Assembly (NCBI RefSeq): GCF_011044975.1
Contig: NZ_JAAKZV010000028.1
Span: 1 to 51,683, forward strand
Direction of reading: 5' to 3'
Length of the DNA: 51,683 nucleotides
Source: Streptomyces coryli
GTDB taxonomy: Bacteria > Actinomycetota > Actinomycetes > Streptomycetales > Streptomycetaceae
The notes under the pieces were generated by a model, which had not been told where the DNA came from, made no database searches, and was given only the letters and a program-made list of their open reading frames with translations. Shown one piece after another: positions 8,179-17,676 of the stretch (its first letter is position 1; every line of letters begins with the position of its first letter). The translations under genes were made by a program, and so were the position numbers.

Positions 8179-9165
8179 ATGTCGATGACCCGCCGCCCGC
8201 AGCGCTCCAGATTCGCCGCCGCTACGGCCCTGACCGCAGCCTCCGTGCTGGTACTTGCCGCCTGCGGCTCCGGGGACGACTCGTCCTCCGACTCCGGCAA
8301 CGCGGCCGCCGAGGCCAAGAAGGTCTCCGTCACCGACGCCACCGGCAAGAAGGTCGAGGTGCCGGCCGCCCCGAAGAAGGTCATCGCGCTCAGCGAGATG
8401 GACCTCGACTCCTCCCTCGCCCTCGGCGTGAAGCCGGTCGGCCTGACCGCGGGCCGCGGCCAGAAGGGCGCGCCCGAGTACCTGGCCGACAAGGCGAAGG
8501 GCATACCCGTGGTCGGCGCCGTCACCGGGCCCGACATCGAGAAGGTCGTCCAGGCCAAGCCGGACGTCATCCTCGCCGGGCAGCTCGCCGACCAGCAGGT
8601 GCTCAAGCAGCTGCAGGAGGTGGCGCCGACCGTCGTCACCATCGACCGCAAGAAGGACTGGAAGAAGGCCCTCACCCTGACGGGCCAGGTGCTCGGGAAG
8701 TCCGGCGAGGCGAAGACCTTCCTCGCCGACTACGACACCAAGGTCGCCGAGGTGAAGAAGTCCCTCGGTGACAACGCCGGCGCCGACGTCTCCGTCGCCC
8801 GCTACTCCGCCAAGGGCACCGCCGTCATGCAGCAGGGCGTCTTCATCTCCGACGTCCTGAAGGACATGGGCTTCAAGCGCCCCGGCATCCAGAACAAGCC
8901 GGGCCAGGGCCACTCCACCCCGCTCAGCGACGAGGACCTGAAGCAGATCGACGCCGACTGGCTCTTCATCGGCACCCTCGCCTCCACCGGCAAGGACGCC
9001 TCGCTCTTCAAGGAGCTCAAGAGCAAGCCCGCATACAAGCAGCTGAGCGCGGTCAAGGACGGCCACACCACCGAGATCGACGGCTCGAAGTGGACCAGCC
9101 TCGGCGGCGCGCTCGCCTCCGTCTCCGTGCTCGACGACATCGAGAAGGCCATGGGGGACAAGTGA
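8179..9165 (+). CDS. Siderophore-binding lipoprotein (FepB-like)
   Basis: 328 residues. Residues 1-29 are a lipoprotein signal peptide ending in the lipobox LAAC (Cys29), followed by an acidic/Ser linker [11 protein letters not shown]. The rest is a type III periplasmic-binding fold: [22 protein letters not shown] in the first lobe, [18 protein letters not shown], and [11 protein letters not shown] in the second. GGAGA at 8167 sits 7 bases before ATG 8179; a second ATG at 8185 is possible. It captures ferric siderophore for the divergent permease/ATPase operon. Unusually for an importer part, it is the first gene of the biosynthetic operon and overlaps entA by 4 bp (GTGA). Confidence 0.93.
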
Positions 9166-9944
9166 CCGCAGCCGACGGTCTCTCGGGCAGGACCGCGCTG
9201 GTCACCGGCGCAGGCCAGGGCATCGGCGAGGCCGTCGCCCGCGCGTTCGCACAAGCGGGCGCGCGGGTGGTGGCCGCGGACCTCGCCCCTGCCGGGGTGA
9301 AGGCGCTGGCGGAGGAGTACGGAGAGTCGCGGGTGACCGCCCGTACCGTCGACGTCGCCGACGCGGCGGCCGTCGAGGAGCTGCTCACGGAGGTCGAGCG
9401 CACGCTCGGCCCGCTGGACATCCTCGTCAACGTGGCCGGGGTGCTGCGGCCCGCGCAGGTCGCGGAGCTCACGGACGCGGACTGGTCGCGCACCTTCGCG
9501 GTCAACACGACGGGCGTGATGAATACGTCCCGCGCGGCCTCGCGCCGGATGGTCGCGCGCGGCGCCGGGAGCATCGTGACGGTCGGCTCGAACGCGGCGG
9601 GCGTACCGCGGACGGGGATGGCGGCGTATGCCGCCTCGAAGGCCGCGGCGACGATGTTCACCAAGTGCCTCGGCCTGGAGATCGCCCGGAGCGGCGTGCG
9701 CTGCAATGTCGTCTCGCCCGGCTCGACGGACACCGCGATGCAGCGGCAGCTGTGGGACGGCGACGAGGTCCCGCGCGGCGTGATCGAGGGCGACCCGGAG
9801 TCGTATCGCACCGGGATTCCGCTGGGGCGGATCGCCGCCCCGGCGGATGTCGCCGAGGCGGTCGTCTTCCTGGCATCGGACCGGGCCCGGCACATCACGA
9901 TGCACGACTTGTACGTGGACGGCGGCGCCACGCTGCGCGCTTGA
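9162..9944 (+). CDS. entA: 2,3-dihydro-2,3-dihydroxybenzoate dehydrogenase
   Basis: 260-residue classical short-chain dehydrogenase. The NAD-binding motif TGAGQGIG is at residues 13-20 and the active site YAASK follows the serine of TVGSNAAGV. Homologues oxidise 2,3-dihydro-2,3-dihydroxybenzoate to 2,3-dihydroxybenzoate (DHB), the last step of catechol formation. The assignment among SDRs rests on its position with entC, entE and entB. The GTG start at 9162 overlaps the stop of the binding-protein gene (GTGA), so the two are translationally coupled. A 178-bp gap follows before entC; I see no iron box or convincing promoter in it. Confidence 0.88.
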
Positions 9945-16800: not shown

Positions 16801-17676
16801 AGGCTGCGCGAGACGCTGGGCGCGGAGCTGACGATCGGCACGCTCTTCCAGGCGCCGTCGCCCGCCGCCCTCGCCGCCCGCCTGGAGGAGGGCGGGGCCG
16901 CCGACGACGCGCTCGGGGTGCTGCTGCCGCTGCGCGCCACGGGCTCGCGCACCCCGCTGTTCGCGCTGCACCCGGCGGGCGGGCTGAGCTGGTGCTACTC
17001 GGCGCTGCTGGCGCGGCTCGACCCGGAGCAGCCGGTATACGGGCTGCAGGCGCGCGGCCTGACGGGGGTCGGTGAACTCCCGCGCACGCTGGAGGACATG
17101 GCCGCCGACTACGCCGCGCAGATCCGCTCCGTGCAGCCGCACGGCCCGTACCGGCTGCTCGGCTGGTCGGTCGGCGGCGTGGTCGCGCAGGCGGTCGCCG
17201 TGCGGCTGCGGGAGGCGGGGGAGCGGGTGGAGCTGCTGGCGCTGCTGGACGCGTACCCGTCCGATCAATGGCGCGGTCTTGCCGTACCCGTCGAGGCGGA
17301 CGCGCTGCGGGCGCTGCTGCGGATGGCGGGCTTCGACCAGGAGGGCGAGCTGACCACGGAGGGCGTGCTGGCGACGCTGCGCCGCGAGGGCAGCGCGCTG
17401 GCGGGTCTGTCGCAGCGGACGCTGCGGGCGGTGCTGGACATCGTCGTGAACAACGCCCGGCTGATGCGCGAGCACGACACGCGGGTCTTCGACGGCGACG
17501 CGCTGTTCTTCACGGCGGCGGCGCCGCGGGAGGAGGACTGGCTGACCCGGAAGGCGTGGGCGCCTTACATCGGCGGGACGCTGGAGAACCACGACATCGA
17601 CTGCCTGCACCAGGAGCTGACGCAGCCGGAGCGGATGGATGAGATCGCGGAGGTGCTGCGGGCGCGGCTGCGATGA
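13801..17676 (+). CDS. entF: Enterobactin synthase component F, one-module NRPS (C-A-T-TE), predicted Ser-specific
   Basis: 1291 residues, the same size and domain order as E. coli EntF. Condensation domain about 10-440 with HHIVMDG at 137-143; adenylation domain about 460-960 with YTSGSTGRPKG from 604; carrier domain with Ser992 in LGGTSLL; thioesterase about 1040-1290 with Ser1123 in GWSVGG. Read against EntF, the substrate pocket (FDVSVW, HFVPSML, VFCSGEA, NLYGPTEAAVDV, plus the A10 Lys) gives the code DVWHFSLVDK, which is the known serine code. The expected reaction is DHB-Ser formation on the module, then trimerisation and cyclisation by the thioesterase to enterobactin. The GTG at 13801 overlaps the carrier gene stop, so they are coupled. 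No epimerisation domain is present, as expected for L-Ser. Confidence 0.93.
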   Translation: MTTLAEPAAHELPLTAAQSGMWYAQALDPESPAQNTAEYLEIHAAVDPHAFGEALRRVAAEADALRVRIADGPDGPRQWYAAPAAFPLEVLDLAEDAALAWMRADLARPFDLAAEPPFRHALIRVGERRWFWYQRVHHIVMDGYGYSLLARRTAEAYTALAAGADPGPSPFGSLADLVAEDAAYRASDAFAADREHWAAAFADHPEVITLAGRTALPSRTFLRRSAHLDPEATDKLKAVAGSVRATWPEVLIAAQALYVSRATRTTDVVLGLPMMGRMGSAALRIPGMVMNVLPLRLTVTPDATFAELTRQVVLGIRAARKHQRYRYEDIRRDLGLLGEGRALTGPLVNVMPFDYDLTFAGARADAHNLSAGPVEDLTVNVYDRTDGRGLRIDYDVNPALYADAEVAAHQERFLDLLGRLAVADPHARLSEHGIATELERAEVLLKFNDTARPVPPTTLVGPIEARAMRTPHATAVVHGLDALTYAQLDARANQLARHLATLGVRPGALAAVAVPRSLDLVVTLLAVLKAGGAYLPLDPDYPAARLAYMLEDAAPACVITDVADRLPDTAGVPQVVLDGLDLSAYLTINPPRALTPQHPAYVIYTSGSTGRPKGVVVPHSAIDNRLRWMQAEYGLEPSDRVLQKTPSGFDVSVWEFFWPLREGATLVVADPGGHQDPDYLARTIREQAITTCHFVPSMLQVFLGAAEAAGAAGPLRRVFCSGEALPRETAADFHRVLPGVPLHNLYGPTEAAVDVTYHACEPGSSGPVPIGRPVWNTRLYVLDEAGQPCPPGVPGELYLAGAQLADGYLGRPELTDERFVPDPYGPLGTRMYRTGDLARWTADGEVEYLGRTDHQVKLRGLRIELGEIEAALAADDTVNGAGVLVREDRPGDQRLVGYVTGSDADPKALRERLAARLPEYMVPGAIVVLDAFPLSPNGKLDRKALPAPSYEGAAARAPRTPLEETLTRLFAEALGLDRVGVEDAFFDLGGTSLLAARLVTRLRETLGAELTIGTLFQAPSPAALAARLEEGGAADDALGVLLPLRATGSRTPLFALHPAGGLSWCYSALLARLDPEQPVYGLQARGLTGVGELPRTLEDMAADYAAQIRSVQPHGPYRLLGWSVGGVVAQAVAVRLREAGERVELLALLDAYPSDQWRGLAVPVEADALRALLRMAGFDQEGELTTEGVLATLRREGSALAGLSQRTLRAVLDIVVNNARLMREHDTRVFDGDALFFTAAAPREEDWLTRKAWAPYIGGTLENHDIDCLHQELTQPERMDEIAEVLRARLR

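What the first reader, a model, noticed from the sequence alone, without database searches (positions are those of the whole stretch)
8179..17676. A full enterobactin pathway in a Streptomyces-like genome
Genes for a binding lipoprotein, EntA, EntC, EntE, EntB, an aryl carrier protein and EntF lie on one strand, with overlaps or short gaps except one 178-bp gap. Together they cover every step from chorismate to a DHB-Ser trilactone. Streptomyces mostly make hydroxamates such as desferrioxamine; a complete catecholate set of enteric type is uncommon and suggests exchange or piracy functions. Seen in sequence: the gene set. Known: the Ent reactions. Inferred: the product.
Basis: partly seen in the sequence, partly recalled or inferred. 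Interest (0 to 1): 0.75.

Follow-up and report, generated by a model that had tools for sequence, protein, structure and literature searches.

The report
Streptomyces enterobactin cluster, known type
This Streptomyces-like DNA carries a linked, apparently iron-controlled set of genes to make, take up and break down the iron-scavenging molecule enterobactin; this kind of cluster has already been described in other Streptomyces, so it is largely ordinary.

Summary
In detail: a binding lipoprotein and entA-entC-entE-entB-ArCP-entF lie at 8179-17676 with the stated spacing. EntF is C-A-T-TE with specificity code DVWHFSLVDK, as in Escherichia albertii EntF.

The system is larger than reported. Two FecCD permeases and an ATPase diverge from the lipoprotein gene (5051-8042), and a Fes-type esterase lies 7.6 kb downstream (25303-26625, minus strand). 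The only two iron-box-like palindromes in the window sit at those two promoters. Most likely this is self-made enterobactin: synthesis, uptake and hydrolysis under an iron repressor.

The type is published: the Streptomyces varsoviensis ens cluster, in a strain from which enterobactin was isolated (PMC10188961). Full-length EntF relatives (68% or more) occur in at least 18 of 199 genomes of the genus. "Enteric type" and recent exchange with enterics are not supported: DHB-pathway proteins are 62-81% identical to griseobactin-type Streptomyces loci, 48-63% to Bacilli and 38-50% to gammaproteobacteria.

Side result: two genomes, one S. rimosus, carry ArCP-EntF-uptake genes apart from their DHB genes; in another S. 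rimosus strain that block is on a linear plasmid, with entF frameshifted. The product here is inferred.

The parts
5051..5875 (-). Ferric-siderophore ABC ATPase; start codon uncertain
   Evidence: PF00005 112.5 bits; 85% identical to S. longisporoflavus L013 over 92%
5872..6912 (-). FecCD-type permease; start uncertain
   Evidence: PF01032 249.7 bits
6957..8042 (-). FecCD-type permease
   Evidence: PF01032 282.8 bits
8042..8060 (.). Iron-box-like palindrome in the divergent promoter
   Evidence: 1 mismatch to TWAGGTWAGSCTWACCTWA; 1 mismatch to the non-degenerate consensus on one strand, 2 on the other
8179..9165 (+). Siderophore-binding lipoprotein
   Evidence: PF01497 96.7 bits; LAAC lipobox by eye
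9162..9944 (+). entA, 2,3-dihydro-2,3-DHB dehydrogenase
   Evidence: TIGR04316 354.4 bits, cut-off 300
10123..11325 (+). entC, isochorismate synthase (DhbC type)
   Evidence: NF005380 489.1 bits, cut-off 486
11318..12928 (+). entE, DHB-AMP ligase
   Evidence: TIGR02275 759.9 bits, cut-off 723.55
12935..13567 (+). entB isochorismatase without fused carrier domain
   Evidence: PF00857 140.5 bits
13574..13804 (+). Stand-alone aryl carrier protein, 76 aa
   Evidence: PF00550 52.2 bits; 75-81% identical in 8 of 8 Streptomyces single-module loci compared
13801..17676 (+). entF, C-A-T-TE synthetase, serine code DVWHFSLVDK
   Evidence: Domains; code and TE Ser/His
25303..26625 (-). Fes-type enterochelin esterase; ATG at 26625 behind GGAGG chosen by eye
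   Evidence: PF11806 94.3 and PF00756 81.3 bits on 25303-26553; linked to EntF in relatives
26665..26683 (.). Second iron-box-like palindrome, about 40 bp before fes
   Evidence: 1 mismatch to TWAGGTWAGSCTWACCTWA; 5 and 6 mismatches to the non-degenerate consensus

Best explanation
An iron-regulated enterobactin system of the Streptomyces ens type. EntC makes isochorismate from chorismate; the isochorismatase and EntA turn it into 2,3-DHB; EntE adenylates DHB and loads the stand-alone ArCP; EntF activates L-serine, joins it to DHB, and its thioesterase trimerises and cyclises DHB-Ser. Ferric enterobactin is bound by the lipoprotein, imported by the two permeases and the ATPase, and opened by the Fes-type esterase to free the iron. 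A DmdR/IdeR-type repressor at the two iron boxes would switch on all three transcription units when iron is low. Shown: genes, order, domains, code, catalytic residues, boxes, conservation in relatives. Inferred: reactions, product, regulation, and that PPTase, MbtH partner and exporter come from elsewhere in the genome.
For: Curated models for EntA, DhbC and DHB-AMP ligase are met. The code DVWHFSLVDK is found in 28 of 28 distinct full-length relatives at about 60% identity or more and in 16 of 17 gammaproteobacterial EntF rows read (L050 has Y for F), with TE Ser and His in all 28; last modules of dimodular DhbF- and griseobactin-type NRPSs read DFWNxGMVHK and DhbF first modules DILQLG. Two box matches at most 3 mismatches off in 51.7 kb, both at the expected promoters; none in 20 mononucleotide shuffles. 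The S. varsoviensis ens cluster has the same core, four transport genes and an esterase, and the strain yielded enterobactin (PMC10188961, sections read).
Against: No product data. The window's genome is not held, so PPTase, MbtH and exporter could not be sought in it. The NCBIfam EntF equivalog is far under its cut-off (921.4 of 2400). The code shows the amino acid, not the number of units or cyclisation. The degenerate box consensus is recalled and was applied after the stricter one had matched the fes site poorly.
Confidence: 0.9

Rival explanations
1. The main products are linear or modified DHB-Ser oligomers rather than the cyclic trilactone.
For: S. varsoviensis gave monomer, dimer and linear-trimer congeners besides enterobactin (PMC10188961). 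A Fes-type esterase is linked here.
Against: The TE is complete and groups with the other Streptomyces EntF thioesterases. Pfam named no methyltransferase among nine ORFs scanned between entF and fes, of which three had no Pfam family at all.
Confidence: 0.15
2. The cluster was recently acquired from enteric bacteria.
For: Same pathway logic and the same serine code as enteric EntF. PMC10188961 proposes acquisition from enterics by horizontal transfer for the S. varsoviensis cluster. The transport ATPase is nearer to gamma loci (46-48%) than to Bacilli (32-39%).
Against: The Streptomyces EntF rows form one group (SH-aLRT 100, 100, 95 for C, A, TE) and gamma rows another (100 each). Window A, C, E and B proteins are all nearer to two Bacilli (48-63%) than to gamma loci (38-50%). 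In the EntE tree the Streptomyces and gamma groups are both at 100.
Confidence: 0.02
3. A griseobactin- or bacillibactin-type product (DHB with two amino acids per unit), the second module being encoded elsewhere.
For: The DHB genes are as close to griseobactin-type loci (62-81%) as to many single-module loci (64-81%).
Against: EntF is one module with its own TE and a serine code; relatives with the same EntF form a distinct group. The window's genome could not be searched.
Confidence: 0.04

Closest known systems
ens cluster of Streptomyces varsoviensis (enterobactin; PMC10188961)
   Same: A, C, E, isochorismatase, separate carrier protein, C-A-PCP-TE with predicted serine, four transport genes, enterobactin esterase (section 3.1)
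   Different: That cluster is described with two methyltransferases and ensU1-U9 downstream; here nine apparently unrelated ORFs part entF from fes. The two sequences were not compared directly.
Enterobactin clusters of Streptomyces sp. Tu6176 and NTK937 (passages of PMC5481532)
   Same: entA, entB, entC in an NRPS cluster ascribed to enterobactin
   Different: Gene-level comparison not possible from the passages
Escherichia/enteric ent-fep-fes system
   Same: Same reactions, serine code, uptake and esterase roles
   Different: Enteric EntB is isochorismatase fused to ArCP (recalled); proteins here are 31-50% identical to gamma homologues and miss the enteric-named NCBIfam cut-offs
Griseobactin-type Streptomyces clusters and Bacillus dhb
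   Same: DHB cassette, 62-81% and 48-63% identical for A, C, E, B
   Different: Their NRPS has two modules ending in a module with code DFWNxGMVHK

Membership tests
Enterobactin biosynthesis | Isochorismate synthase, isochorismatase and DHB dehydrogenase | tested here: met
Enterobactin biosynthesis | DHB-AMP ligase and aryl carrier protein | tested here: met
Enterobactin biosynthesis | One-module C-A-T-TE synthetase with serine code and TE catalytic residues | tested here: met
Enterobactin biosynthesis | NCBIfam EntF equivalog (NF007605) cut-off | tested here: not met
   921.4 of 2400 bits; membership is claimed by architecture and code, not by this model
Enterobactin biosynthesis | PPTase and MbtH partner in the same genome | not testable with these tools
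   Own genome not held. Relatives: MbtH in 8 of 8 (seven Streptomyces, one Amycolatopsis); 4PPT_N in 15 of 18, absent in G006, G044 and G185
Enterobactin biosynthesis | Product is the cyclic DHB-Ser trimer | not testable with these tools
   Needs LC-MS
Enteric-type ent system | Enteric-named NCBIfam models for EntC, EntE, EntF, FepB | tested here: not met
   285.8/624, 642.1/783, 921.4/2400, 61.8/205
Enteric-type ent system | EntB with isochorismatase and ArCP in one protein | tested here: not met
   Separate genes
Griseobactin / bacillibactin | Two-module NRPS | tested here: not met
   One module

The most novel reading that the evidence does not exclude
The single-module serine synthetase of Streptomyces was assembled independently of enteric EntF, on a DHB cassette shared with griseobactin-type clusters, so enterobactin arose more than once; and ArCP-EntF-uptake-esterase is a movable unit that can be parted from the DHB genes (two genomes, and a linear plasmid of another S. 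rimosus strain) and live off another cluster's DHB.
Probability: 0.3. Interest if true: 0.5.

Novelty: new member of a known kind. Interest (0 to 1): 0.2.

Why it matters
It adds a complete-looking member to a known Streptomyces enterobactin type and ties an esterase to it through a shared iron box. The split arrangement in relatives makes it testable whether two siderophore synthetases can share one DHB supply.

Tried and rejected
Enteric origin: three EntF domain trees and one EntE tree, all 'quick' trees with SH-aLRT only. The 55 EntF rows (42 for TE) were chosen by me from 223 distinct matches; the 51 EntE rows were likewise chosen. Recent transfer does not fit the topology. Older shared origin stays open: holding Streptomyces and gamma EntF together gave AU p 0.436 (C), 0.534 (A) and 0.196 (TE). 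For EntE the first constraint (15 single-module rows plus 7 gamma) gave p 0.022, but it included L088, which lies outside the main group; without it p was 0.131, so no formal rejection is claimed. Nine of the ten 'dimodular' labels in the EntE tree rest on a long NRPS frame near EntE; that of L092 (G006) was given by analogy with G044. Long rows were flagged by the tree program.

Not every gene ranks the same way: for EntB the best gamma identity (50%) equals or slightly exceeds the one alphaproteobacterial locus (49%), EntC gamma reaches 47% as does the alpha locus, and the transport ATPase is nearer to gamma loci than to Bacilli.

Piracy: nothing in the sequence calls for it. Rfam and tRNA scans of the window gave nothing. 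In the PDB the top matches to EntF were linear gramicidin synthetases; E. coli EntF (5ja1) matched over 10-1290 at 822 bits. One Pfam query (32181-33767) was in the wrong frame and empty; the right frame (32158-33756) gave AMP-binding. Searches (listings only, open-licence library) showed no paper on a split or plasmid-borne Streptomyces enterobactin synthetase.

Full report
NCBIfam models for the DHB dehydrogenase (354.4, cut-off 300), DhbC isochorismate synthase (489.1, cut-off 486) and DHB-AMP ligase (759.9, cut-off 723.55) are met; those named for EntC, EntE, EntF and FepB of enterics are not (that these are enteric-specific is my reading of their names). EntF has C, A, T and TE domains. 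Its specificity residues, placed by the recalled GrsA numbering, read DVWHFSLVDK. So do 28 of 28 distinct full-length relatives at about 60% identity or more, all with TE Ser and His, and 16 of 17 gammaproteobacterial EntF rows. Last modules of bacillibactin- and griseobactin-type NRPSs read DFWNxGMVHK, DhbF first modules DILQLG. Serine is the predicted substrate.

The system is larger than reported. Two FecCD permeases and an ATPase run divergently from the lipoprotein gene (5051-8042). An enterochelin esterase (PF11806, PF00756) lies at 25303-26625 on the minus strand, 7.6 kb beyond entF. A scan with TWAGGTWAGSCTWACCTWA, at most 3 mismatches, finds two sites in 51.7 kb: 8042-8060 in the divergent promoter and 26665-26683 about 40 bp before the esterase; 20 mononucleotide shuffles gave none. 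This degenerate, recalled consensus was used after the plain one had matched the second site with 5 mismatches. Of 20 relatives' loci scanned, boxes stand at both places in L003, L008, L010, L141 and L149, and more weakly (3 mismatches at fes) in L004 and L006; L001 and L009 have none; L005 and L013 have one before the lipoprotein gene but none at fes. The esterase gene follows EntF closely in L003-L006, L008, L009 and L013 and lies a few kb off in S. rimosus, but was not found in L001, L002 or L007.

The type is known. The S. varsoviensis ens cluster has the same core, transport and esterase genes, and the strain yielded enterobactin and linear congeners (PMC10188961: abstract, introduction, section 3.1 and discussion read). 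Streptomyces sp. Tu6176 and NTK937 enterobactin clusters are mentioned in passages of PMC5481532. The 2001 Fiedler report I know only as cited in PMC10188961. Rothia mucilaginosa, also an actinobacterium, makes enterobactin (PMC7190385: listing and passages).

Prevalence. Of 199 genomes drawn from the genus of G006 (an S. rimosus genome), 18 have a full-length EntF relative at 68% or more; below that come partial matches (such as G067, G160, G039, G026) and full-length ones at 53% or less. EntE at 72% or more is in 42 of 199. Both are lower bounds, since only 3 (EntF) and 7 (EntE) candidates per genome were scored. Setting the two lists side by side, EntE lies next to or within 3 kb of EntF in 15 of the 18; in G040 the contig ends inside the cluster; in G006 and G044 EntE lies elsewhere (another contig; 1.5 Mb away). 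In G044 the DHB cassette is about 20 kb from a two-module NRPS; in G006 no such NRPS was seen in the 19 kb read around the cassette, and one of 2462 aa lies on another contig. In S. rimosus R6-500 the permeases, lipoprotein, ArCP, entF and fes lie on the linear plasmid pSRP1.2, typed mobilizable; the first 24 kb hold no DHB genes beyond a short-chain dehydrogenase 36% identical to EntA. That entF matches in two different frames and carries no listed gene, so this copy looks frameshifted, whereas L010 (strain NRRL WC-3904) is open throughout. All 18 genomes have IucA/IucC-family genes, a family not confined to desferrioxamine.

Origin. Identities of the window's A, C, E and B proteins are 62-81% to four griseobactin-type Streptomyces loci, 48-63% to two Bacilli, 47-62% to two alphaproteobacterial loci (one for A, C, B) and 38-50% to 12 gamma loci (10 for A). 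In the C, A and TE trees the 16 Streptomyces rows form one group (100, 100, 95) and the 10 gamma rows another (100 each). In the EntE tree 38 Streptomyces cassettes of both NRPS kinds form one group (100) far from the gamma group; two more EntE of the same genus (57-59% identical) fall outside it. A recent enteric gift does not fit. An older shared origin of the two EntF kinds is open (AU p 0.436, 0.534, 0.196).

Limits. The window's genome is not held. In relatives MbtH was found in 8 of 8 genomes and a 4PPT_N-type PPTase in 15 of 18; the three without one (G006, G044, G185) include both split genomes, and other PPTase families were not searched. Product, cyclisation and regulation are inferred.

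Noticed in passing
L010 and L150 (G006, S. rimosus); L149, L147, L148 (G044); L141 4398-16855 (S. rimosus R6-500 plasmid pSRP1.2): ArCP-EntF with uptake genes and fes but no DHB genes beside them; the DHB genes lie elsewhere. The plasmid copy of entF in R6-500 looks frameshifted.
   Followed up: partly
window 28182-33756: PaaX-type regulator, enoyl-CoA hydratase-like protein, PaaA_PaaC-like protein and AMP-binding ligase: resembles, by recall, an aerobic benzoyl-CoA (box) pathway.
   Followed up: no
window 34677-36143: 488-aa methionyl-tRNA synthetase-like protein beside the aromatic genes; whether it is a second copy is unknown.
   Followed up: no
L139 and L153 (G160), L140 (G039): EntF variants next to an ordinary DHB cassette; only residues about 188-904 are 75-76% identical to the window's EntF.
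   Followed up: no
L151 (G192) 4968-14200: Rearranged enterobactin gene order with entC inverted and three perfect iron-box matches.
   Followed up: no
L143 (Haematobacter massiliensis plasmid pOT1-1) 4075-9834: EntE-ArCP-EntF with serine code and no DHB-making genes found in the 15.8 kb read.
   Followed up: no
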